19,884 bases of DNA. It comes from Flavobacterium psychrophilum. Its GTDB lineage: Bacteria; Bacteroidota; Bacteroidia; Flavobacteriales; Flavobacteriaceae. This document shows, piece by piece, positions 4,178 through 19,400 of the stretch. A program made the translations under genes and the position numbers. Numbering within the stretch: position 1 is the stretch's first letter; every line of letters begins with the position of its first letter. Under the pieces are notes generated by a model, which ran no database searches, was not told where the DNA came from, and saw only the letters and a program-made list of their open reading frames with translations. The stretch spans positions 1 through 19,884 of the forward strand of contig CAMBHH010000044.1 in NCBI GenBank assembly GCA_945866505.1, read 5' to 3'.

Positions 4178-5800
4178 TTATAAAGCATCTATTGATCCAA
4201 AAGTTTTCCAAACAAGAGCCGCCTTATAATTCGACACTGAATTGGAAGGTACTTTTAAAGATGTACTACCGAGATTTACATACTGAAAGACACTTGCGTC
4301 TATTGTCAAAGGAGTAACTATATTTACACTTACATTTTTTAATCCATTGCAATTGTAAAATGCACCATTTCCAATACTTGTTATACTATTTGGGATGATA
4401 ACATTTGTTAGGGAACTACATCCAAAAAAGGTGTCAACTGAAATTTTTGTCACTGTATTTGGAAACTCAAAACTAGTAAAACTATAACAATTACCAAAAG
4501 CAGTTTTTCCAATTTCTTTTATTCCAATGGGAAGAACTACTTTGGTCAAGCTCTTACAATTATAAAAAGCGATTTCAGGTATTAAAGTAACTCCATTTGG
4601 AATCGTAATTTCACCGATACTATTGCAACCCGCAAAAGCTCCCTTTCCAATACTTGTAACGCCACTTGGGATATTAATTTGTGTTAAACTACTGCAGTTA
4701 TAAAAAACTGTTTCAGCTATACTTGTTAAGTTACTTGGCAAAGCAAAATTCTTTAAGCTCGCACAATTCCCAAAAGCATTGCTTCCAATGCTTGTTATAC
4801 TGCCCGGCAAAACAATATTTTCTAAACTTGCACACCCATAAAAACTTGCATTTCCTATACTTGTAACCCCACTTGGTATAATAATATTTGTTAGCTTAGC
4901 ACACTCATAAAACAAATTATCTGGGAAACTTGTGAAATTACTTGGAATAACTGCTTTGGTTAAATTAACACACATGCCAAAAGCAGATGGCCCTATACTT
5001 GTAACTGTTTGCGGGATGATAATTTCTTTTAAAACAGAACACTCATAAAAAGCTGATGAACCAATTGTTGTTATATTACTTGGTATTATGTAACTCGTTA
5101 GGCTATTACATGCATAAAAAGTTTCATTTGGTATTTTTGTAAAAGTAGATGGAAATGTAACATTAGTTAAACTTACACATAAACCAAAGACAGCAGATCC
5201 CATATTTGCATTTATAACACTATTTGGTATTATAACATTGTTTAAACTGCTGCAATCGTAAAAAACTGCATTTCCAATACTTGTTATGGTATTTGGTATC
5301 GGCAAAGAAACTAAACTTTTGCAACTAGCAAAAACACCATCAGATAAATGGGAAGTTCCAGAGGGAATTTTAATGTCTTTTAAACTTGTACATTTACCAA
5401 AAGCATCTTTGTTAATAGTTGTTACAGCGTCAGATATATTGATACTCGTGATCTTAGAATCGTCGTAAAAAGCAAGTTTTCCTATACTTTTTATATTACT
5501 TGGAATAATCACACTTGTTAAATTATAACAATAGGCAAACCCTTCATCTGCAATACTTGTTATCGTGTAGGTAACTCCGTTTTTTTCTATTGTTTGAGGT
5601 AAGCTCAAAACGCCTGATGGTCCGATTTCAGTTTCCTTTTTTACGGACACTTCTTTGTTGATGGAGTTAGTTACTGTATATCTATAAATCCCATCACTGA
5701 AAGAAGTTTCTGTAGGATTTTCTATAGGATCTTCTGGTGTAGTGCTACATGATGAAAAAACCAAAGAAAAAATTATAAAATAAAGATATGTCTTTTTCAT
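4178..5800 (-). CDS. BspA-type leucine-rich-repeat (LRR_5) surface lipoprotein
   Basis: A lipoprotein signal peptide occupies residues 1-18, with lipobox VFSSC at 14-18. A Thr/Pro/Glu/Asp linker follows. Residues about 75-505 are about 18 LRR_5 repeats of 23 residues, each of the form xxLxxVxIPxxVTSIGxxAFxxC. The C-terminal tail (VPSNSVSNYKAA, WKTFG) is typical of Bacteroidetes LRR_5 proteins. No T9SS sorting domain is present, so anchoring is through the lipid. Acidic residues just after the Cys (TTPEDP) could act as a surface-export signal, but the local rules for that vary. LRR_5 proteins such as BspA mediate adhesion and protein binding; no catalytic motif is seen. The gene lies upstream of the polysaccharide operon on the same strand, so a matrix or adhesion role is plausible but unproven. 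Confidence 0.88.
   Translation of the reverse strand: MKKTYLYFIIFSLVFSSCSTTPEDPIENPTETSFSDGIYRYTVTNSINKEVSVKKETEIGPSGVLSLPQTIEKNGVTYTITSIADEGFAYCYNLTSVIIPSNIKSIGKLAFYDDSKITSINISDAVTTINKDAFGKCTSLKDIKIPSGTSHLSDGVFASCKSLVSLPIPNTITSIGNAVFYDCSSLNNVIIPNSVINANMGSAVFGLCVSLTNVTFPSTFTKIPNETFYACNSLTSYIIPSNITTIGSSAFYECSVLKEIIIPQTVTSIGPSAFGMCVNLTKAVIPSNFTSFPDNLFYECAKLTNIIIPSGVTSIGNASFYGCASLENIVLPGSITSIGSNAFGNCASLKNFALPSNLTSIAETVFYNCSSLTQINIPSGVTSIGKGAFAGCNSIGEITIPNGVTLIPEIAFYNCKSLTKVVLPIGIKEIGKTAFGNCYSFTSFEFPNTVTKISVDTFFGCSSLTNVIIPNSITSIGNGAFYNCNGLKNVSVNIVTPLTIDASVFQYVNLGSTSLKVPSNSVSNYKAALVWKTFGSIDAL
4250..5560 (-). repeat. Tandem 69-bp LRR units with a ~207-bp (three-unit) superperiod
   Basis: The LRR coding region repeats every 69 bp (23 codons). 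The repeats also come in threes. The phenylalanine-glycine form (AFGKC, VFGLC, AFGMC, AFGNC) falls at repeats 3, 6, 9 and 12. It is followed each time by a unit lacking SIG (SHLSDG, TKIPNE, TSFPDN, TSIAET) and then by a unit containing an IG (TSIG or TTIG). The phase changes after repeat 13. Boundaries are approximate. Confidence 0.7.
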
Positions 5801-9931: not shown

Positions 9932-10297
9932 TCAGTCTTTTTTCACAGCAATGCTTGTCGGATTGTAAATTTGTGGGATTTGTTTTGGGTCATTTTTATA
10001 GGTTGTGATTTTACCTTTTATGTATATGGTTTTGTCTTTCAAGTCTTCGATTTTGAGGTTCATTTTTTCGAGGTAATTGTTTGAAATCACAACTGTAAAA
10101 ACGCTCTCTGGATATGGTTTATCTATGTTGATGTAATTGGTGTTTTTGCCTTCGGAGGCAAGTTTGAATGATACTACTTTGCCCATTACACAAACTTCTT
10201 TATCCATATAATCCTTGACCTTGACGGTTGTGATGGTGTCTTGCGAAAAACAATTAATCGAAAATACGAAAAATAAAACTGTTACTAAATTTTTCAT
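9932..10297 (-). CDS. Small exported OB-fold protein
   Basis: I place the start at ATG 10297 (121 residues), 15 bases after the upstream nuclease stop. An in-frame TTG at 10312 would add five residues ahead of a normal signal peptide. Residues 1-18 form the signal peptide (VLFFVFSINCFS, cleaved before QDT). The Cys lacks the small residue at -1 expected of a lipobox. The mature part reads as a five-strand OB fold: VKDYMDKEVCVMGKVVSF, TNYINIDKPYP, VFTVVISNNYLEKM, LKDKTIYIKGKITTYK and PQIYNPTSIAV. OB folds commonly bind nucleic acids or oligosaccharides. Here the preceding co-directional gene encodes a secreted EEP hydrolase, so a role in periplasmic nucleic-acid binding is plausible. No catalytic residues are seen. 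Confidence 0.78.
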   Translation of the reverse strand: MKNLVTVLFFVFSINCFSQDTITTVKVKDYMDKEVCVMGKVVSFKLASEGKNTNYINIDKPYPESVFTVVISNNYLEKMNLKIEDLKDKTIYIKGKITTYKNDPKQIPQIYNPTSIAVKKD

Positions 10298-10312
10298 GGT
10301 TTTAATTTTCAA

Positions 10313-11422
10313 CTATTTAACTTCTTTAACTAAGTAAATATAAACCGGAAAGTGGTCACTGTAGCCTATTTCGTTTTCAGAATGTCGCAAAGGATAACCT
10401 GCATACCTACCAAATTTTTGAATCATAAACGGCTTGTTGTAAATTCCTGCTTTCCAATATTGATAGGTAGAACGATCTTCTTTTATCATGGTTTCGGAAA
10501 CCATAATTTGGTCAAATATATCACCTGAATCTCTGTAAAAAAGTGTAGCATTACCGTCTTTAAACATTTGTTCGAAAGGATTATAAACCCCAAATTGTTG
10601 TACTTCCGATTTTTTCAATTTCGCCCCAATCCCAACTTTGACACTTTTGTTATAACTTCCATCATTCAAATCTCCCATCAATATAATTTTGGCATTCGGA
10701 TTTTTGTTATAGATAGAGTCCATTGCTTTTTTAGCTAATCTCCCTGCAGCTTCGCGAAATGGGCTACTTTTTTTCTCGCCACCAGAGCGAGATGGCCAGT
10801 GATTGACCATAATGTTAATTTCCTCTCCGTCAAGAAATCCTGTTACAAGTAGAATGTCTCTGGTATAAACTCTATTGTCATTAGCAATTTCTATCTTGTC
10901 TTTGTCTAATTTTTCTTCCTCAGTTTCTTTTTCTTTCTCTTTTTCGTTACTATTCCCTCTGTAAATAATCAAAGGAATGTTGATGAAACTTGTGGGTTTG
11001 AAATGTTTTTTCTGGTACAGCAAAGCAACATCAATTCCTCTTTTATCAGGAGAATCAAAATGTACAATTCCATAATCATTTTTGGCCATATTGGGATGTT
11101 TCACCAAATCTTCCAAAACATTTCGGTTTTCAATTTCACAACCTCCTATTATGGCTGGAGCTTCTTTTTGTTTGTCATTCGTGCCAATTTGCATTAATAC
11201 TGTAGAAAGATTTTCTAGTTTTTGTTTGTATTTTTCAGAAGTCCAACGCTGAAGCCCCGCAGGCAACCATTCTTCGTCATTGTTTGGGTTGTTGATGGTG
11301 TCGAATAAATTTTCGAAATTATAAAAGGCAACCGTACGTAGGGCATAATTTTTCTGTTGCGCATTGGTTTCAAAATTTGAAGTTATAGCAAAAAAAACTG
11401 CAATTAGGACTTTTATTCTCAT
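10313..11422 (-). CDS. Secreted endonuclease/exonuclease/phosphatase (EEP) family hydrolase
   Basis: This 369-residue exported protein has a signal peptide at 1-21 (cleaved about TNAQ). The EEP (DNase I-like) fold motifs appear in order: FYNFENLFD (33-41), the acidic CEIEN (95-99), DKRGIDVALLY (126-136), NHWPSR (207-212), GDLND (250-254) and SDHFPVY (355-361). These supply the Mg2+ ligands and the Asp/His pairs for phosphodiester hydrolysis. EEP members cleave DNA, RNA, phospholipids or inositol phosphates, so the substrate is not fixed by the fold. A Glu/Lys run at 158-178 interrupts the domain and looks like low-complexity expansion. The gene is followed after 15 bases by the OB-fold gene. 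It is divergent from a TonB receptor gene whose downstream partner is a secreted endonuclease, which favours nucleic acid as substrate. Confidence 0.88.
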   Translation of the reverse strand: MRIKVLIAVFFAITSNFETNAQQKNYALRTVAFYNFENLFDTINNPNNDEEWLPAGLQRWTSEKYKQKLENLSTVLMQIGTNDKQKEAPAIIGGCEIENRNVLEDLVKHPNMAKNDYGIVHFDSPDKRGIDVALLYQKKHFKPTSFINIPLIIYRGNSNEKEKEKETEEEKLDKDKIEIANDNRVYTRDILLVTGFLDGEEINIMVNHWPSRSGGEKKSSPFREAAGRLAKKAMDSIYNKNPNAKIILMGDLNDGSYNKSVKVGIGAKLKKSEVQQFGVYNPFEQMFKDGNATLFYRDSGDIFDQIMVSETMIKEDRSTYQYWKAGIYNKPFMIQKFGRYAGYPLRHSENEIGYSDHFPVYIYLVKEVK

Positions 11423-11466
11423 GATTTTATATTATTTTTATGTAAAATTTAACAATTACTTGTTGG

Positions 11467-11502
11467 CAAAAGTAAATAATAAAAATTATAAATGTAGTTT
11501 TG
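11467..11502. promoter_or_regulatory. Two opposed -7-like boxes in the divergent intergenic region
   Basis: The 132-bp gap between the two divergent gene sets contains TACTTTTG on the minus strand (11474-11467) and TAGTTTTG on the plus strand (11495-11502). Both fit TAnnTTTG and lie 44 and 52 bases from their ATGs. The two boxes form an imperfect inverted repeat. Neither has a TTTG at the correct -33 distance, so either the promoters depend on an activator or the match is chance. Confidence 0.35.
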
Positions 11503-11554
11503 TAATCGTTAAGAATTATTATTTCTTATCAATACGAATTAACTTTAATTAAAT

Positions 11555-14314
11555 ATGAAAAAAATTATTTTTAGCGCACTATTTGTTTTGCAATTAGTGT
11601 TTGCTTTTGGACAATCGAATGCTGGGGTTACCGGTAAAGTGGTCGATTCAAAAACACAGAAACCATTAGAAGGCGTTATACTATCGATTCAAAATACCAA
11701 TTTAATGCAACTTTCAGATGCTAACGGGAAGTTCACTTTTGACAAAATTGAAATTGGCAGCCAGTTTTTGCGCATACGAACAAACGGGTACAAAGAACAA
11801 TTACTTCAAATAGAAATTGTTGCAGGTCAACTCCTAGATTTTGGGACAATAACTTTAGAGGAAGATATTACCACAGAACAACAATTGACCTTAATTACAA
11901 TTACAGATAATGATTTAAGTGATGATAACGGTGGTTCCGAAAGTACAGCAGGATTGCTTCAAGCATCGAGAGATGTTTTTTTACAAGCAGCAGCATACAA
12001 TTTTGGCCAAGCCAGATTTAGTGTTCGTGGTATTGACAACGAATATTCGAATATACTTATCAATGGTGTTTCAATGAATCGATTGTCTGACGGAAGACCG
12101 CAATACAGCAACTGGGGAGGACTAAATGACGCCACAAGAAATCAAGAATTTACCAATGGTTCAGCACCATCAGATTATACATTTGGCGGAATTGCAGGGA
12201 CACAGTACATTACTACAAGAGCATCTGTTTACCGCCCTGGAACAAGACTTTCCTTTTTGAGCACCAATACTAATTACAACTTTAGAGCGATGGTAACTCA
12301 CGCATCGGGTATGGATAAAGATGGCTGGGCATATGTAATTTCTGGTGGAAGACGATGGGCGCAAGAAGGTTATTTTGACGGGACAGATTATGCTGCCAAT
12401 TCATTATTTGCGAGTATTGAAAAGAAAATAAACAACCATCACAGCCTTAACTTTACCTCAATTTATGCTCAAAACAGAAGAGGGAAAAATTCTCCAAATA
12501 CCCAAGAAGTTACTGATTTGAAAAACTTTAAATACAACTCTTATTGGGGGTATCAAGAAGGTGAGAAAAGAAATTCTAGAGTAAAAGATGTTGAAGAGCC
12601 TATTTTTACCTTAAGCCACTTTTGGAAATTTAATTCTAAAACCAAATTAAACACCAATGTTTCGTACCAATTTGGACAAATAGGAAACAGCCGTGTCGAT
12701 TTTCAAAAAACCGCTAATCCAGATCCTAATTATTACAGAAATTTGCCAAGCTATTACACAACCCTATATACTTATAATAATGATGTAGCAACCTACACTC
12801 CAGATTTTGCCGCTGCAGAGGAGACAAAAGCAAATTTCCTTGCCAATCCGCAAATGGATTGGAGAGGTATCTATCGCATCAATAATGAAAACCTAACTAA
12901 CGGAAGTCGTTATGTTTTATACGAAGACAGAACAGATGATAAAACTATTGTAGCCAATACTATCCTTTCTTCTCAATTGGCAGATAATATCGTAATGAAT
13001 GCAGGTGGAAGTTTTACCAAATTAAAATCATCCAACTTCAAAAACCTAATCGATTTATTAGGAGGAACTTATTATAATGATATTAACACTTTTGGTACTT
13101 TGCCCGGCGAAGAACATTCTGATTTGAATAATCCAGACAGAACAATTGTCGAAGGAGATAAATATGGGTACAATTATGAAGTAAATGCCACTAGAATTGA
13201 TGCTTTCACCCAGTTTAAATTTACTTATGATAAAATAGATTTTTACCTTGGACAAGCTTTTTCCAGAAGCAGTTATCAAAGAGAAGGATTGTACAAAAAT
13301 GGGTATTATGCAAATAATTCATTTGGAAAAAGCGAAAAATTAAACTTTGACAACTTTGGTTTCAAAGGCGGTGCCACCTATAAAATTACAGGACAACATT
13401 TTATAGATTTCAATGGTATTTATATGACTAAAGCCCCGAATCACAAAGATGTTTTCCCAAATGCTAGAGTCAATAATATTACAACACCCAACATTAAAAA
13501 CGAAACTATCAATAGTGTGGACGTGAGCTATGTAATAAGAATGCCAAGCCTTAAAGCGCGTTTCACTGGTTATTTCAACGAAACCCAAAACACTACTGAT
13601 GTTGCTTTTTATTATGCAGATGCAATTAATGCTGGAAACGGTGAGTTTGTAAATGAAGTTCTTTCTGGTCAAAACAAAAGAAACAAAGGAATTGAAGCTG
13701 GTTTAGAATATCAAGTTACATCTACTATAAAAGCCACAGCTATAGCAGCTTATGGAGACTATACGCATACTAACAACCCGAATTTAGCGATTAACGCTGA
13801 TGGACAAACCACAGCGATTTTTGACGGAAAAGCCAATTTAGAAGGATACAAACAGGGTGGAATGCCGCAACAAGCTTATTCGGCTGGACTAGAATATCGT
13901 GATCCAAAATTTTGGTGGATTAGTGCCAACGTGAATTATTTGTCTAATAATTATTTGGACGTAGCACCATTATTAAGAACAGAAAAATATATTACAGATT
14001 CCGATCAAGCGAATTTCCCATTTGATCCGGCATTATCAGCTAGTTATTTAGCTCAAGAGAAATTTAAAGACTTCACCCTTGTAAATCTTGTAGGAGGAAA
14101 AACTTGGAGAATACAAGAAAAAACTTTAGGATTGTTTGCCAACGTCAATAATGTTTTCGATATTCAATACAAGACAGGGGGCTTCGAACAAGCAAGAAAT
14201 GCTACATATAGCGAATTATATAAAGATCACCAGGGGCCCACTCGTTCTTTTGGACCTAAATATTTCTACGGATATGGAAGAACATTTATGGTAAATGTTT
14301 ATTTAAACTTTTAA
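11555..14314 (+). CDS. TonB-dependent outer-membrane receptor with CarboxypepD_reg-like N-terminus
   Basis: This 919-residue protein begins with a signal peptide (1-19, cleaved about FAFGQ). A CarboxypepD_reg-like Ig domain (about 24-100) opens with GVTGKVVDSKTQKPLEGVIL and contains DANGKFTFDKI. A plug domain follows (about 130-225; VFLQAAAYNFGQARFSVRGID, ILINGVSMN). A long beta-barrel ends in FMVNVYLNF, with the aromatic terminal residue of outer-membrane barrels. Such receptors import bulky ligands using TonB/ExbBD energy. The size and N-terminal domain resemble SusC-like transporters, but the next gene is a DUF5689 lipoprotein and not a SusD. Together with the downstream secreted endonuclease and the divergent EEP nuclease, this suggests import of nucleic-acid fragments or nucleotides. 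The ligand is inferred from context only. It leads a plus-strand operon; the next ATG is 12 bases after its stop. Confidence 0.92.
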   Translation: MKKIIFSALFVLQLVFAFGQSNAGVTGKVVDSKTQKPLEGVILSIQNTNLMQLSDANGKFTFDKIEIGSQFLRIRTNGYKEQLLQIEIVAGQLLDFGTITLEEDITTEQQLTLITITDNDLSDDNGGSESTAGLLQASRDVFLQAAAYNFGQARFSVRGIDNEYSNILINGVSMNRLSDGRPQYSNWGGLNDATRNQEFTNGSAPSDYTFGGIAGTQYITTRASVYRPGTRLSFLSTNTNYNFRAMVTHASGMDKDGWAYVISGGRRWAQEGYFDGTDYAANSLFASIEKKINNHHSLNFTSIYAQNRRGKNSPNTQEVTDLKNFKYNSYWGYQEGEKRNSRVKDVEEPIFTLSHFWKFNSKTKLNTNVSYQFGQIGNSRVDFQKTANPDPNYYRNLPSYYTTLYTYNNDVATYTPDFAAAEETKANFLANPQMDWRGIYRINNENLTNGSRYVLYEDRTDDKTIVANTILSSQLADNIVMNAGGSFTKLKSSNFKNLIDLLGGTYYNDINTFGTLPGEEHSDLNNPDRTIVEGDKYGYNYEVNATRIDAFTQFKFTYDKIDFYLGQAFSRSSYQREGLYKNGYYANNSFGKSEKLNFDNFGFKGGATYKITGQHFIDFNGIYMTKAPNHKDVFPNARVNNITTPNIKNETINSVDVSYVIRMPSLKARFTGYFNETQNTTDVAFYYADAINAGNGEFVNEVLSGQNKRNKGIEAGLEYQVTSTIKATAIAAYGDYTHTNNPNLAINADGQTTAIFDGKANLEGYKQGGMPQQAYSAGLEYRDPKFWWISANVNYLSNNYLDVAPLLRTEKYITDSDQANFPFDPALSASYLAQEKFKDFTLVNLVGGKTWRIQEKTLGLFANVNNVFDIQYKTGGFEQARNATYSELYKDHQGPTRSFGPKYFYGYGRTFMVNVYLNF

Positions 14315-14326
14315 GAATTTAGCCTT

Positions 14327-15781
14327 ATGAAAAATATATTTAAAAATAGCTTAATCACTGTACTATCAATCGGATTGTTTTCAGGTTGTGTAAATGATAC
14401 TTACGATACTCCACAATTCGGAGATTGTGTAAATCCAGGTTTAACCAAAACGAAGGAAGTTGCCGATATTTATGTAGTCGCAATAAATCCAGTGCCAAAT
14501 CCAACAACGGGAATTCCAAATACACCAACATATCATAATTATAAAGATCCTGCCGATCCAACAAAAGGAGAAAATAACGATTACATTGAAGCCTATGTTA
14601 TTTCAAGCGACGAAGGTGGGAATTTCTATAAAAGTATGTATTTTCAACCCCTTGATGGTTCAAAAGGATTTAATCTTTCAGTAGACGAAGCAAGTCTTTA
14701 TACTAAAAACTATCAACCTGGAAAAAAAGTGTTCTTAAAACTTAACGGTTTGGCTTTTGGAAATCCTAACAATCGTTTTGCAAGAGGATTGGTTTTTGGT
14801 GCACCTCCAACAGATCAATATGATGTGGATAGACTTCCAACTTTACAATACCCAAAACACCTTATCGCTTCTTGTGATATAGTGAGTGAGGAAGATATAG
14901 TTCATAAAATCACTTTAGCTCAAGCCTTTAGCGATACTTACTTGAATACTTTGGTAGAAATTGATAATGTTCAATTTACTGATGAAGCAGCTGGTGGAAC
15001 CTATGATTCCAATAGAACAGATGATTTTGACTCCAGTATTTTTATAACTGAAAATGGATCAAAAAATTTAACCATTAGAACAAGTCGATTTGCCAATTTT
15101 GCAGGTCGTAGAGTTCCTACAGGTAAAGGAAAAATAAGAGGTGTATTGACCAAATACAACACCACTTATCAAATTATAATGAGAACCGAACGTGACGTTA
15201 ATATGCCAAATGAAAGAGTAGATTATACTCCTGCTCTTGTTGGCTCAAATTCTAACGTTTTCCCGTCAACTGTAAATGAAACATTTGAAAGTTTTTCCAC
15301 TTCTCCTGCTCAAACTAATTTTCCAAATTATATCAATGATGCAGCAGTTGGCTCGAGATACTATGATACAAGGACATTTAATTCAAATAAATACATTCAA
15401 GTAACCTCTTTTGGTTCAGGTGGTGCAAATAAATCTTACTTCTTTGTTCCTGTTAATATGACTGCCGCTAATAATTTTTCATTCAGATCTAATATGGGCT
15501 TTTGGAATGGTGCAGTGTTAAAAGTGTATTATGTTCTAGCAACAAATTACACAGCAGGAGGCGCAATTGATGTGACAAAAATGGTTGATATTACTTCAAT
15601 ATTTACAATTCCCTCAACCCCAGCCTCTGGTTATGGAAGCTCATTTACAGCAAGTGGTAATTATGCTATTCCATCAACTGTAATCGGAAATGGATATTTT
15701 GTTTTTGAATATTCTGGAGATGCAAACGCTTTTCCAGCGGTTACTTCCACTTTACAATTGGATAATATTATTGTGAATTAA
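14327..15781 (+). CDS. DUF5689 surface-type lipoprotein with OB-like segments
   Basis: This 484-residue lipoprotein has lipobox LFSGC with C21. Residues about 84-155 (YIEAYVISSDEGGNFYKSMY, then FNLSVDEASLYTKNYQPGKK and LNGLAFG) are the hallmark of DUF5689. Residues about 205-292 (TLVEIDNVQF ... GKGKIRGVLTKYN ... IIMRTERDVNM) form a second segment. Both have strand patterns like OB folds. The C-terminal part (about 316-484; NETFESFS ... LQLDNIIVN) looks like the jelly-roll module common in secreted Bacteroidetes proteins. It occupies the position SusD takes beside SusC. A surface-bound partner that captures ligand for the TonB receptor is the natural reading. OB-like folds next to two secreted nucleases suggest that the ligand is nucleic acid. 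Family recognition is good; function is inferred. Confidence 0.8.
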   Translation: MKNIFKNSLITVLSIGLFSGCVNDTYDTPQFGDCVNPGLTKTKEVADIYVVAINPVPNPTTGIPNTPTYHNYKDPADPTKGENNDYIEAYVISSDEGGNFYKSMYFQPLDGSKGFNLSVDEASLYTKNYQPGKKVFLKLNGLAFGNPNNRFARGLVFGAPPTDQYDVDRLPTLQYPKHLIASCDIVSEEDIVHKITLAQAFSDTYLNTLVEIDNVQFTDEAAGGTYDSNRTDDFDSSIFITENGSKNLTIRTSRFANFAGRRVPTGKGKIRGVLTKYNTTYQIIMRTERDVNMPNERVDYTPALVGSNSNVFPSTVNETFESFSTSPAQTNFPNYINDAAVGSRYYDTRTFNSNKYIQVTSFGSGGANKSYFFVPVNMTAANNFSFRSNMGFWNGAVLKVYYVLATNYTAGGAIDVTKMVDITSIFTIPSTPASGYGSSFTASGNYAIPSTVIGNGYFVFEYSGDANAFPAVTSTLQLDNIIVN

Positions 15782-15800
15782 TTTTTTTAAATAAATCTAT

Positions 15801-15832
15801 AAAAGGCTTCTTTGATAGAAGCCTTTTTTTTT
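15801..15832 (+). terminator. Rho-independent terminator inside the operon, before the endonuclease gene
   Basis: A perfect 10-bp stem (AAAAGGCTTC at 15801-15810, GAAGCCTTTT at 15818-15827) has a 7-base loop and an unbroken T tract through 15832. It begins 19 bases after the DUF5689 stop and ends 17 bases before the endonuclease ATG. Confidence 0.85.
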
Positions 15833-15849
15833 CTAAATTAACCAAAATA

Positions 15850-17814
15850 ATGAAAAAAATAATTTTTGTATTCACATTGTTATTTTATACTATTTCGAAT
15901 GCACAAGTAGTCATTAACGAGTTAGATACCGATACACCCGGCACTGACGATAGAGAATTTGTTGAACTAAAATCATTAGTTCCTAATTTTTCGTTAGACG
16001 GTTATCTTTTAGTATTCTTTAATGGAAACCCTACTTCTACATCTGCAAATAAAAGCTATATAACCATCGATTTAAGGGGATTAGCAACTGATGCCAACGG
16101 GATAATTGTAATTGGAAATTCGATGGTTTCACCAACTCCAGTTGAAATATTTCCCGACAATGTAATTCAAAATGGCGCAGACGGTGTGGCACTTTATCGA
16201 AGTGGTCTATCTTTCTTTCCCGATAATACACTAGCAACAAAAACAAACTTGGTTGATGCTTTAATGTACGACACAAATGATCCCGACGCAGTGGGCTTAA
16301 TGGATATATTAGGCGTAAGTGTTCAATATAATGAGGGTCAAAATAATCGATCAGAAACGCAATCTATCCAAAGAAAAAACGATGGTACTTTTGAAACTAA
16401 AAATCCAACACCGGGCGCTAATAATGACGGAAGTGGCATTGTTTTCAACGGAATAAGTATATCAGTGAGTGTTACGAACAAAACCGAAGGCGAAAGTTTC
16501 TCCATAACATTTACCACACAAACCAATGTAACAAGTGATTTGTCATTTACTTTTACATTAAACAATGCAACATTCAAAACGACCGATTTTACAGGAAATA
16601 CTGCAATTACAATTCCAAAAGGAACAAAAAGTTTTACCACAACTATTACCCTTGTCGACGATATTTTAAATGAAGGTGATGAGGTTTTAAAAATTAGTAT
16701 TGGTACGATTCCATCGCAATACATACTCCTTAATGACAATATTGAGATACGAGTTTTAGACAATGATTTCACCATTGCTTCGTATGGATCTCCTTTGAAC
16801 CCAACTTACGGAACAATTTCGAACACTGCCCCAAATGGATATTATGCAACGCTCGAGGGGCTTTCTGGACCTGCATTAAAGCAAGCAATTCTGGATATTA
16901 TTGCCAATCCAGCTGTAGTTCATGCTCACAATTATGGCGATCTTATCGAAATTCTAAAAACTGCTGATCAAAACCCTAAAAACAGTAATCAAGTTTGGTT
17001 AATGTATGTAGAACAATCCCGGTCTAAAATTGACTTTCAAGACACTGGAACGAATACTGGAAAATGGAATCGCGAACACATCTATCCACAATCACGCGGT
17101 GGTTTTTCAAACGGAACAGCGAGTATTCCTGATGGAATTAACAAATGGAATACAACAAATGCAAATGATATTCTTGCTGGTCACGCCGATGCACATCATA
17201 TTCGTGCCGAAGACGGACCTGAAAATAGTTCGCGGGGCAATAACGATTATGGCTTAACGGGCTACGACGGTCCAAGTGGAACAATGGGATCGTGGAAAGG
17301 CGATGTGGCTCGTTCACTTTTTTATATGGCTATTCGCTACAATGCTTTGAGTGTTGTTAATGGTGATATTCCCGATGCTACCGTTGGCCAATTAGGCGAT
17401 TTGGCTTCTTTATTAAAGTGGAATATCTTAGATCCAGCAGATGATTTTGAAATGAATCGCAATAATTACATTTACACTTGGCAAGTCAACAGAAATCCAT
17501 TTATTGATTATCCCGATTTGGCTAATTATATTTGGGGTTCAAAAGCGGGTCAAGCTTGGCATTTTAATCTATCGACCAATGATTTTGCGCATTTAAAAAT
17601 AAATCTCTATCCCAATCCTGCACATAAATTTATTACAATCTCAGGTCTGAAGGAAAAAGCAACAGTCGAAATTTATAATAGTCTTGGCGCAAAAATATTG
17701 GACCAAAAATTCAATGGCGAAATCCAATTGAACATTGATTTTCCGGCAGGAATCTATTATGCCAAAATCGGTTTAGGCGAACAATCAATTGTTAAAAAGT
17801 TCTTGGTGGAATAA
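15850..17814 (+). CDS. T9SS-secreted endonuclease I with lamin-tail and Calx-beta-like domains
   Basis: This 654-residue multidomain protein has a signal peptide at 1-18 (SNAQ). A lamin-tail domain follows (about 19-192; VVINELDTDTPGTDDREFVEL, ending NPTPGANN). Next comes a Calx-beta-like domain (about 200-306; VTNKTEGESFSITF, NEGDEVLKISI, RVLDNDF). The endonuclease I domain spans about 310-562, with the beta-beta-alpha-metal signature WNREHIYPQSRGG at 406-418, a His-rich HADAHHIRAED at 445-455 and the conserved NRNPFIDYP at 546-554. The C-terminus (582-654; LYPNPAHKFITISG ... FPAGIYYAKI ... IVKKFLVE) is a type A T9SS sorting domain. The protein should therefore be released or attached at the cell surface. 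Endonuclease I enzymes (EndA, NucM and Vvn relatives) cut DNA and RNA non-specifically. The lamin-tail domain may hold the enzyme to polymer or surface. Its place after a TonB receptor and DUF5689 lipoprotein supports a nucleic-acid scavenging role. Confidence 0.93.
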   Translation: MKKIIFVFTLLFYTISNAQVVINELDTDTPGTDDREFVELKSLVPNFSLDGYLLVFFNGNPTSTSANKSYITIDLRGLATDANGIIVIGNSMVSPTPVEIFPDNVIQNGADGVALYRSGLSFFPDNTLATKTNLVDALMYDTNDPDAVGLMDILGVSVQYNEGQNNRSETQSIQRKNDGTFETKNPTPGANNDGSGIVFNGISISVSVTNKTEGESFSITFTTQTNVTSDLSFTFTLNNATFKTTDFTGNTAITIPKGTKSFTTTITLVDDILNEGDEVLKISIGTIPSQYILLNDNIEIRVLDNDFTIASYGSPLNPTYGTISNTAPNGYYATLEGLSGPALKQAILDIIANPAVVHAHNYGDLIEILKTADQNPKNSNQVWLMYVEQSRSKIDFQDTGTNTGKWNREHIYPQSRGGFSNGTASIPDGINKWNTTNANDILAGHADAHHIRAEDGPENSSRGNNDYGLTGYDGPSGTMGSWKGDVARSLFYMAIRYNALSVVNGDIPDATVGQLGDLASLLKWNILDPADDFEMNRNNYIYTWQVNRNPFIDYPDLANYIWGSKAGQAWHFNLSTNDFAHLKINLYPNPAHKFITISGLKEKATVEIYNSLGAKILDQKFNGEIQLNIDFPAGIYYAKIGLGEQSIVKKFLVE

Positions 17815-17980: not shown

Positions 17981-18997
17981 ATGATTTCTATGGGATTCAA
18001 AATTAATATTAAAGTATTGGCTAGCCAAAATATAGTTTTATATCGACTTCTAATCCTTATTTTTGTTTTACAATTTTCCAACATTCAAGCCCAAATACCT
18101 ATGAAAATTCCCGCTAGTTTACAAAAAGGAGATACGATAGCCTTGGTAGCAACTGCCCGAAAAAATATTGACGACAACTTGAAACCCGCCATCGATTTAT
18201 TGCACAGTTGGGGATTGGAAGTCGTAATTGGCAAAACTATTGGATTGGACAATAACCAATTGGCGGGAACAGATGCCGAACGAGCAGCGGATTTTCAACA
18301 CCAATTAGATAATCCAAATATTAAAGCCATTTGGTGTGTTCGTGGCGGTTATGGAACTATAAGAATGATTGATTTACTGGATTTTACAAAATTCAAAAAA
18401 AATCCAAAATGGATTGTAGGTTTCAGCGACGTAACCGTAATTCACAGTTATATCAACAACTTAAATATTGCCACCATTCACGGCGCAATGCCTATAACCG
18501 TGGGAAAAGCCAGCACAGAATCGATAGAGAGTTTACGGAAATCACTTTTTGGCGAAAGCCTAGAATATGAAATTCCATCTGAGGTATCGAATAGATTAGG
18601 AAATGCCAAAGGCGAAATTGTGGGCGGAAATTTGTCTATTTTATACAGTCTTATGGGATCGAATGCTCAAATCGATTGCAAAGGAAAAATACTTTTCATC
18701 GAAGACCTAGACGAATATTTGTACCACATCGACCGAATGATGATGAGTTTAAAACGTTGCGGTTGTTTTGATAATTTGAATGGCTTAATCGTTGGAACAA
18801 TGACTAAAATGAAAGACAACGACATTCCTTGGGGGAAAAATGCCAACCAAATTATCGAAGATGTAACCAAAGGATATTCGTTTCCAGTACTTTATAATTT
18901 TCCGGCGGGACATTTTCGCGACAACCGAGCCTTGATTTTTGGCAAACAAGTCTCTTTAGAATTAAATACAACAACTTCGAAACTCACTTTTGAGTAA
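17981..18997 (+). CDS. ldcA: Exported S66-family LD-carboxypeptidase (muramoyltetrapeptide carboxypeptidase)
   Basis: This 338-residue serine peptidase would remove the terminal D-Ala from peptidoglycan tetrapeptides. The S66 motifs are all present: CVRGGYGTIRMID (119-131), the nucleophile in GFSDVT (147-152, S149), GEIVGGNLSIL (211-221), E241 in FIEDLDE, and H311 in PAGHFRDNRA. These give the expected Ser-Glu-His triad. Classical LdcA is cytosolic; this one has an N-terminal hydrophobic stretch (about 20-36, ending NIQAQ) like a signal peptide, so it probably works in the periplasm. The upstream start is uncertain: ATG at 17981 or ATG at 17990 would both keep the signal peptide, while M41 would give a leaderless cytosolic enzyme. 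The gene is followed closely by the yraN-type gene. Family assignment is secure; location is likely but not certain. Confidence 0.9.
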   Translation: MISMGFKINIKVLASQNIVLYRLLILIFVLQFSNIQAQIPMKIPASLQKGDTIALVATARKNIDDNLKPAIDLLHSWGLEVVIGKTIGLDNNQLAGTDAERAADFQHQLDNPNIKAIWCVRGGYGTIRMIDLLDFTKFKKNPKWIVGFSDVTVIHSYINNLNIATIHGAMPITVGKASTESIESLRKSLFGESLEYEIPSEVSNRLGNAKGEIVGGNLSILYSLMGSNAQIDCKGKILFIEDLDEYLYHIDRMMMSLKRCGCFDNLNGLIVGTMTKMKDNDIPWGKNANQIIEDVTKGYSFPVLYNFPAGHFRDNRALIFGKQVSLELNTTTSKLTFE

Positions 18998-19013
18998 CTC
19001 GCAACTTCCCACT

Positions 19014-19033
19014 TCTAACCTCTAACCTCTAAC
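19014..19033 (+). repeat. Short tandem heptamer (TCTAACC, ~2.9 copies)
   Basis: Between the LD-carboxypeptidase stop and the yraN ATG the sequence TCTAACC repeats nearly three times, preceded by the related ACTTCCCACT. It is a simple-sequence tract in a 43-base spacer. Confidence 0.7.
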
Positions 19034-19040
19034 TTTCAAA

Positions 19041-19400
19041 ATGGCCGACCACAACGATTTAGGAAAACTTGGAGAAGAAATAGCGGTTGAATTTCTTCAA
19101 AAAAACGGCTATGAAATTCTAGAAACGAACTGGACATTCCAGAAAGCCGAAGTCGATATTATTGCCAAAAAAGAAAATATACTTGCCATTATTGAAGTAA
19201 AAACACGCTCTTCACTCGATTTTGGTTTACCTCAAGACTTTGTAAAACCCAAGAAAATTCAACTTTTAGTGAAGGCAGTAAACGAATACGTTATTTCAAA
19301 AGACTTGGATATTGAAGTACGTTTTGACATCATTGCCGTTCATAAAGAAGGTAAGAATTTTGGCGTGGAACATATAATGGATGCCTTTTATCACTTTTAA
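19041..19400 (+). CDS. yraN: YraN family protein (UPF0102)
   Basis: At 119 residues it has the normal size for this family. It carries the characteristic motifs GKLGEEIAVEFLQKNGYEIL (7-26), TNWTFQKAEVDIIAKK (29-44), IIEVKTRSSLDFGLPQDFV (50-68) and PKKIQLL (70-76). The spaced E, D and ExK residues (E12, D39, E52, K54) match the PD-(D/E)XK nuclease-like core that the family is thought to adopt. The cellular role is not established; a DNA-processing or resolvase-like activity has been suspected from the fold. It follows the LD-carboxypeptidase gene after 43 bases and may be cotranscribed with it. Confidence 0.93.
   Translation: MADHNDLGKLGEEIAVEFLQKNGYEILETNWTFQKAEVDIIAKKENILAIIEVKTRSSLDFGLPQDFVKPKKIQLLVKAVNEYVISKDLDIEVRFDIIAVHKEGKNFGVEHIMDAFYHF

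What the first reader, a model, noticed from the sequence alone, without database searches (positions are those of the whole stretch)
9932..17814. Candidate extracellular nucleic-acid scavenging locus
Five exported proteins converge on one theme. There are two predicted phosphodiesterases (EEP and endonuclease I), two proteins with OB-like folds (a small exported one and a DUF5689 lipoprotein), and a TonB-dependent receptor. The lipoprotein takes the SusD position beside the receptor. A workable model is that the T9SS endonuclease cuts extracellular DNA or RNA, the lipoprotein captures fragments, the receptor imports them, and the EEP enzyme with the OB protein finishes them in the periplasm. 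This would be a SusCD-like system for nucleic acid, not glycan.
Basis: inference. Interest (0 to 1): 0.78.

Follow-up and report, generated by a model that had tools for sequence, protein, structure and literature searches.

The report
Probable flavobacterial DNA uptake module
These genes look like a conserved gate with which flavobacteria probably pull DNA through their outer membrane and digest it; their relatives in a duck bacterium are known to be needed for taking up foreign genes.

Summary
The five genes are real. The core is three of them: an EEP nuclease, a divergent TonB-dependent receptor and a DUF5689 surface lipoprotein. Where contigs leave room, DUF5689 follows the receptor in 165 of 167 loci and EEP lies upstream in 132 of 160; 26 of the 28 EEP misses form one clade, whose 27 searched genomes keep EEP elsewhere. 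The receptor is orthologous to that of Riemerella columbina and to a 76%-identical R. anatipestifer protein that fits RA0C_RS04915. Deleting RA0C_RS04915 or its DUF5689 partner abolishes natural transformation (PMC8459023). It is probably not for transformation alone: five small genomes in which neither ComEC nor DprA was found keep receptor, DUF5689 and EEP. The secreted endonuclease is no fixed partner, but lies beside the core in 8 of 95 genomes against 0.8 expected. The OB gene is a local extra. DNA binding, DNA passage, EEP's role and phosphate control are unproven.

The parts
9932..10312 (-). Small exported protein, possibly OB-like; local companion of EEP (the first ATG lies a few codons inside the listed TTG start)
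   Evidence: weak PF13742 hit below cut-off; relatives next to EEP in 14 of 80, 1 of 30 and 0 of 60 loci
10313..11422 (-). EEP-family nuclease/phosphodiesterase with an N-terminal signal-like segment; presumed periplasmic
   Evidence: PF19580 353 bits; N35, E37, N38, E96, H208, D251, N253, D356, H357 invariant in 32 aligned orthologues (that these are the catalytic residues is recalled)
11423..11554 (.). Divergent intergenic region with two facing TAnnTTTG-like -7 elements, 11495-11502 (+) and 11467-11474 (-)
   Evidence: the same kinds of octamer in 65 and 61 of 130 orthologous regions against at most 36 in shuffles (common descent not excluded; the consensus is recalled)
11555..14314 (+). 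TonB-dependent receptor: signal, CarboxypepD_reg domain, plug, barrel; proposed DNA gate
   Evidence: R. columbina orthologue and R. anatipestifer relative
11885..11905 (+). Candidate TonB box (residues 111-117) in a conserved stretch of low model confidence
   Evidence: inference from the alignment consensus and the model
14327..15781 (+). DUF5689 lipoprotein with C-terminal jelly-roll; proposed surface DNA-binding partner
   Evidence: PF18942 182 bits; Cys21 invariant in 78 aligned sequences; model pLDDT 90; fold of residues 313-484
15850..17814 (+). Secreted endonuclease I with T9SS type A sorting tail; accessory
   Evidence: PF04231 102 bits, PF18962 42 bits, TIGR04183 42.6 bits; recurrent neighbour

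Best explanation
EEP, the TonB-dependent receptor and the DUF5689 lipoprotein form a conserved flavobacterial module that brings DNA through the outer membrane. The lipoprotein on the cell surface catches DNA and the TonB-powered receptor admits it to the periplasm. There it has two fates: EEP cuts it into usable pieces, and in competent species some is passed to ComEC for transformation. In this window a secreted endonuclease I adds cutting outside the cell. Shown here: the genes, the orthology and the linkage. Shown by others: in R. anatipestifer the orthologous pair is required for transformation. Inferred: DNA binding by the lipoprotein, passage of DNA through the receptor, the role of EEP, and nutritional use.
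For: Deletion of either gene of the orthologous pair gives no detectable transformation. Orthology: one full-length match at E <= 1e-60 in the R. columbina genome (G145; the tool scored only the top 3 candidates per genome), identity of that protein with a named R. columbina receptor, 76% with an R. anatipestifer protein bearing only PF13620 as described for RA0C_RS04915, 35% over full length between that protein and the window's. R. columbina has EEP, receptor and DUF5689 in the window's order. Linkage: DUF5689 165 of 167, EEP 132 of 160 loci with room; EEP orthologue elsewhere in 27 of 27 genomes of the clade without it upstream. In the 80-genome panel DUF5689 is strong (E <= 1e-20) in 38 of 40 receptor-positive and 2 of 40 receptor-negative genomes, and those two hold a diverged receptor between EEP and DUF5689. 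Endonuclease I near the core in 8 of 95 genomes, 0.79 expected. TonBA and TonBB mutants transform less.
Against: No binding or transport was measured by anyone in the papers seen. ComEC and DprA presence do not follow the receptor: ComEC 31 of 40 positives and 26 of 40 negatives, DprA 34 and 28 (Fisher P 0.32 and 0.18). F. johnsoniae was not competent under the Riemerella conditions although it has homologues. The lipoprotein is acidic (pI 5.1; median 5.1 in 159 orthologues), and its C-terminal fold resembles carbohydrate-binding and adhesin domains. The TonBB effect was ascribed to iron by its authors. Removing phosphate lowered transformation in R. anatipestifer and raised it in R. columbina. 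Two of 60 loci (L147, L153) have no DUF5689 behind the receptor. F. johnsoniae also has low-identity PilB, PilC, PilQ and PilT homologues, which its authors thought might suffice for pilus-type uptake. The small OB and endonuclease genes are not constant.
Confidence: 0.6

Rival explanations
1. One reading: a phosphorus or nitrogen scavenging system in which endonuclease I cuts extracellular DNA or RNA, lipoprotein and receptor import fragments, and EEP and OB finish them; transformation in Riemerella is a by-product.
For: Core kept in five small genomes in which ComEC and DprA were not found; endonuclease I directly after DUF5689 in G461 and G355 of those; low-phosphate induction of endonuclease I proteins in F. 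johnsoniae; Lutibacter takes up DNA-derived carbon.
Against: Endonuclease I and OB are absent from most loci; the table of low-phosphate genes of F. johnsoniae names no DUF5689 protein, though locus tags could not be matched; the transformation defect implies that DNA long enough to recombine gets in (inference).
Confidence: 0.2
2. A transformation-only DNA uptake gate, with EEP making single strands or limiting incoming DNA.
For: Both pair mutants fall below the detection limit, like comEC, dprA and recA mutants; in R. columbina ComEC lies about 11 kb from the module.
Against: Core kept without detected ComEC and DprA; no coupling of presence; in the 40 genomes ComEC is never within 200 kb of the receptor on the same contig.
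Confidence: 0.08
3. The receptor imports something else (metal chelate, cofactor, peptide or glycan) that the cell needs to become competent; the transformation defect is indirect.
For: TonB-dependent receptors usually carry such ligands and the fold is generic; the C-terminal jelly-roll of the lipoprotein resembles carbohydrate-binding modules; iron affects transformation in R. anatipestifer.
Against: Near-constant EEP partner and repeated recruitment of endonuclease I; mutant effect is complete, whereas the deletion of a SusC-type receptor gene hit in the same screen (RA0C_RS09840) had no effect.
Confidence: 0.1
4. Chance neighbourhood of unrelated exported proteins.
For: Fits the small OB gene and the downstream S66 and YraN genes, seen only in close relatives.
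Against: The core is linked at receptor identities down to about 34-36%.
Confidence: 0.02

Closest known systems
RA0C_RS04915/RA0C_RS04920 of Riemerella anatipestifer, essential for natural transformation (PMC8459023: abstract, sections 18, 20, 21 and passages seen)
   Same: Outer-membrane receptor with carboxypeptidase-regulatory domain followed by a DUF5689 lipoprotein; orthologous receptor
   Different: 35% receptor identity; the paper does not name an EEP or endonuclease I partner (its upstream gene RA0C_RS04910 is mentioned without function); transformation untested in the window's organism
SusC/SusD glycan importers
   Same: TonB-dependent receptor with CarboxypepD_reg domain followed by a surface lipoprotein gene
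   Different: Lipoprotein is DUF5689 with a beta-rich model, not SusD; no SusC/RagA model hit; nuclease neighbours, no glycoside hydrolases among the genes scanned
Phosphate utilisation systems (PUS) of F. johnsoniae (PMC8115612: passages and section 14)
   Same: TonB-dependent receptor, lipoprotein and phosphodiesterase genes in one place; endonuclease I proteins EndA1/EndA2 are low-phosphate induced
   Different: PusD proteins are SusD-type; EndA1/EndA2 are orphans there; no evidence of phosphate control for the window's core
BtuB-BtuG type vitamin B12 importers of Bacteroides
   Different: Different lipoprotein family and nuclease neighbours

Membership tests
Riemerella transformation receptor/lipoprotein pair | Orthologous receptor | tested here: met
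   Single match in the R. columbina genome at E <= 1e-60, its identity with a named protein and 76% to R. anatipestifer, 35% full-length to the window. That P0244 is RA0C_RS04915 is inferred from name and domain, not accession.
Riemerella transformation receptor/lipoprotein pair | DUF5689 gene directly downstream | tested here: met
Riemerella transformation receptor/lipoprotein pair | Required for natural transformation | not testable with these tools
   Known only for R. anatipestifer
NCBIfam NF052645 (M949_1556 family lipoprotein) | Score over the curated cut-off of 475 bits | tested here: not met
   Window 283 bits; R. columbina 564 and L161 761 bits pass. The window protein is a relative, not a strict member.
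SusCD system | SusD-family lipoprotein | tested here: not met
   No SusD Pfam or NCBIfam hit; beta-rich model
SusCD system | SusC/RagA family model match of the receptor | tested here: not met
   No NCBIfam hit at E <= 0.01
TonB-dependent receptors | Plug plus barrel fold | tested here: met
   Predicted model:
EEP/DNase I-like nucleases | Family match and conserved catalytic residues | tested here: met
T9SS-secreted endonuclease I | Endonuclease_1 domain and C-terminal sorting tail | tested here: met
OB-fold proteins (small protein, DUF5689) | OB-fold match | tested here: inconclusive
PUS (phosphate utilisation systems) | Induction by phosphate depletion | not testable with these tools
   No expression data for this organism; no Pho-box search was made

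The most novel reading that the evidence does not exclude
Flavobacteriales possess a dedicated TonB-dependent importer for polymeric DNA, made of a receptor, a non-SusD surface lipoprotein and a periplasmic nuclease, used in place of or beside the pilus/secretin route of other Gram-negative bacteria. It serves nutrition first; natural transformation is a second use where ComEC and DprA are kept.
Probability: 0.45. Interest if true: 0.85.

Novelty: new variant of a known kind. Interest (0 to 1): 0.62.

Why it matters
How DNA crosses the outer membrane in naturally transformable flavobacteria is open; the authors of the Riemerella screen found no similarity of this pair to known uptake machinery. 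If a TonB-dependent receptor passes DNA, that is a new class of cargo for a well-studied transporter family. It would also place DNA feeding and gene uptake in one locus carried by most of the flavobacterial genomes sampled here, with a nuclease partner that can be tested at once.

Tried and rejected
Five genes as a fixed unit: rejected. Endonuclease I (catalytic domain) was in 4 of 80, 0 of 30 (loci with only about 1.5 kb of flank) and 4 of 60 loci; OB in 14 of 80, 1 of 30 and 0 of 60. A further profile hit in L137 was not the catalytic domain.

Linkage of the core to ComEC: absent in the 40 genomes (same-contig distances all over 200 kb; different contigs cannot be judged). In R. columbina ComEC lies about 11 kb upstream.

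Presence/absence with competence genes: no significant coupling, which tells against a transformation-only reading. Panels were only roughly size-matched (0.3-3.9 Mb negatives, 1.3-2.6 Mb positives) and completeness is not given for these handles, so absences may be assembly gaps. RecA was found in all five genomes with neither ComEC nor DprA.

OB relation by profile comparison: nothing. The DUF5689 half was not modelled alone, so the missing OB match is no proof. Sequence search of solved structures: no match for EEP or endonuclease I, nothing informative for OB or DUF5689, only the N-terminal domain for the receptor.

Charge: no net positive charge on the lipoprotein. No Pho-box search was made.

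Papers: DUF5689 and the two RA0C locus tags each occur only in PMC8459023 in this library. Searches pairing TonB-dependent receptors with DNA uptake and with DNA degradation listed no other experimental case in Bacteroidota that I recognised; I judged most of these from titles and abstract starts. M949_1556 is reported as a R. anatipestifer virulence-related gene (passages); whether it is RA0C_RS04920 was not established.

I first took the clade without upstream EEP (L088-L110, L112, L113, L116, L117) for Riemerella kin; one search showed that L156 is Riemerella instead.
Full report
Observation. The window encodes, at the given coordinates, a small exported protein (9932-10312, -), an EEP-family enzyme (10313-11422, -), a TonB-dependent receptor (11555-14314, +), a DUF5689 lipoprotein (14327-15781, +) and an endonuclease I with a T9SS tail (15850-17814, +). 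EEP is divergent from the receptor across 132 bases that hold two facing TAnnTTTG-like -7 elements (consensus recalled); such octamers recur in 65 and 61 of 130 orthologous regions against at most 36 in shuffles, though common descent is not excluded. No whole genome is held for the window. The named nearest proteins are mostly from Flavobacterium.

What is conserved. I looked at three sets of loci: the 80 kept of 260 found by receptor search, the 30 best matches of an order-wide search, and 60 loci that I chose from that search to span divergence. Counting loci with at least 900 bases of room, DUF5689 follows the receptor in 77 of 77, 30 of 30 and 58 of 60; EEP is divergent and adjacent in 69 of 71, 7 of 30 and 56 of 59. 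Two EEP misses of the first set (L015, L018) have an EEP match that is partial or slightly further off. The other 26 form one clade; in the four loci of it that I read (L105, L112, L113, L117) the upstream gene reads like a sugar-type transporter by eye. All 27 genomes of that clade searched keep an EEP orthologue elsewhere, for example about 16 kb away in G006 and 71 kb in G265.

Distribution. The receptor was found at E <= 1e-60 in 189 of 294 genomes of the order (185 with one match) and, with the L105 receptor as query, in 179 of 199 genomes of a family (173 with one match); only the top 3 or 4 candidates per genome were scored. Of the 20 family misses, 17 are genomes of 2.2 Mb or less, and two (G428, G352) in fact carry a diverged receptor between EEP and DUF5689.

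Endonuclease I and OB. The window's endonuclease position is shared by four close relatives (L001, L003, L004, L005). In 95 further genomes with 135 endonuclease I genes by my count, 8 have one within about 17 kb around the receptor, against 0.79 expected from genome size (Poisson P 2e-6, not corrected for kinship). It lies directly after DUF5689 in G461, G355 and G438 (start overlapping the end of DUF5689 in L178), between EEP and receptor in G334 (coordinates), and upstream of EEP in G199, G221, G241 and G219. So it has joined the core in at least three arrangements. The OB gene is a local companion of EEP.

Link to natural transformation. In this library DUF5689 is named in one paper, a transposon screen in Riemerella anatipestifer (PMC8459023; abstract, sections 18, 20, 21 and passages seen). 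Clean deletions of RA0C_RS04915 (predicted outer-membrane protein, PF13620) and of its operon partner RA0C_RS04920 (DUF5689) gave no detectable transformation. The authors proposed, as a speculative model, that the pair binds and imports DNA. The receptor in L156 is identical to a named R. columbina protein whose contig has the same length as that of L156, and an R. anatipestifer protein with only PF13620 is 76% identical to it and 35% to the window's receptor. L156 has EEP, receptor and DUF5689 in the window's order at 36%, 38% and 31% identity. R. columbina is naturally competent (PMC7965970, abstract). The paper notes a DUF5017 gene between the pair in F. columnare; three Flavobacterium loci read here have an extra lipoprotein-like gene of about 200 codons there. 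tonBA and tonBB mutants of R. anatipestifer transform less (PMC8383284, abstract and section 20); the authors ascribe the tonBB effect to iron.

Not transformation alone. I compared 40 receptor-negative genomes (the 20 family misses and the 20 listed of 105 order misses; two carry the diverged core) with 40 small receptor-positive ones, only roughly matched in size. ComEC is present in 26 and 31, DprA over cut-off in 28 and 34, RecA in 37 and 38: no significant coupling. DUF5689 at E <= 1e-20 is in 2 and 38, EEP-family proteins at E <= 1e-80, paralogues included, in 13 and 40. Five positives show neither ComEC nor DprA (G343, G355, G415, G429, G461). Four keep EEP, receptor and DUF5689 side by side; the fifth has receptor, DUF5689 and endonuclease I on a short contig and EEP on another. 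G461 also has endonuclease I after DUF5689. If these absences are real, the module has a use without transformation, most simply feeding on DNA. Lutibacter, a flavobacterium, incorporates DNA-derived carbon (PMC8289736, abstract and passages), and endonuclease I proteins of F. johnsoniae are induced by phosphate depletion (PMC8115612, section 14 and passages); no DUF5689 protein is named in that table, but locus tags could not be matched.

Against the reading. F. johnsoniae was not competent under the Riemerella conditions although it has homologues, and it has low-identity pilus homologues that its authors thought might suffice for uptake. Phosphate removal had opposite effects in the two Riemerella species. 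Two of 60 loci lack DUF5689 behind the receptor. No one has measured DNA binding or passage.

Judgement. The best explanation is an outer-membrane DNA gate with a periplasmic nuclease, required for transformation where that was tested and probably also used for nutrition. The pair's role in transformation is published.

Noticed in passing
window 17981-19400: An LD-carboxypeptidase (S66) and a UPF0102/YraN protein with nuclease-like weak hits follow endonuclease I; both are kept beside the core only in some close relatives.
   Followed up: partly
L026 12833-13435, L032 12842-13462, L070 12866-13474: An extra lipoprotein-like gene of about 200 codons, resembling the C-terminal half of the DUF5689 protein by eye, lies between receptor and DUF5689.
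   Followed up: partly
L126 56-5202: A second receptor gene, a lipoprotein-like gene and a lipoprotein-type endonuclease I form an operon-like row just upstream of the core.
   Followed up: no
L147, L153: Receptor and EEP without a DUF5689 gene behind the receptor; another small lipoprotein-like gene follows in both.
   Followed up: partly
L003, L033, L056, L060, L067: Record titles name Klebsiella, Chitinophaga, Bdellovibrio or Nitrotoga, but the loci are Flavobacterium-like (59-86% receptor identity, 57% in L067); probably mislabelled bins.
   Followed up: no
window 4178-5800: Exported protein made almost wholly of BspA-type leucine-rich repeats (LRR_5, 401 bits).
   Followed up: no
G281:C1:2107132-2108168: In the clade with relocated EEP, the EEP match of this genome is read in two overlapping pieces, perhaps a frameshift.
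   Followed up: no
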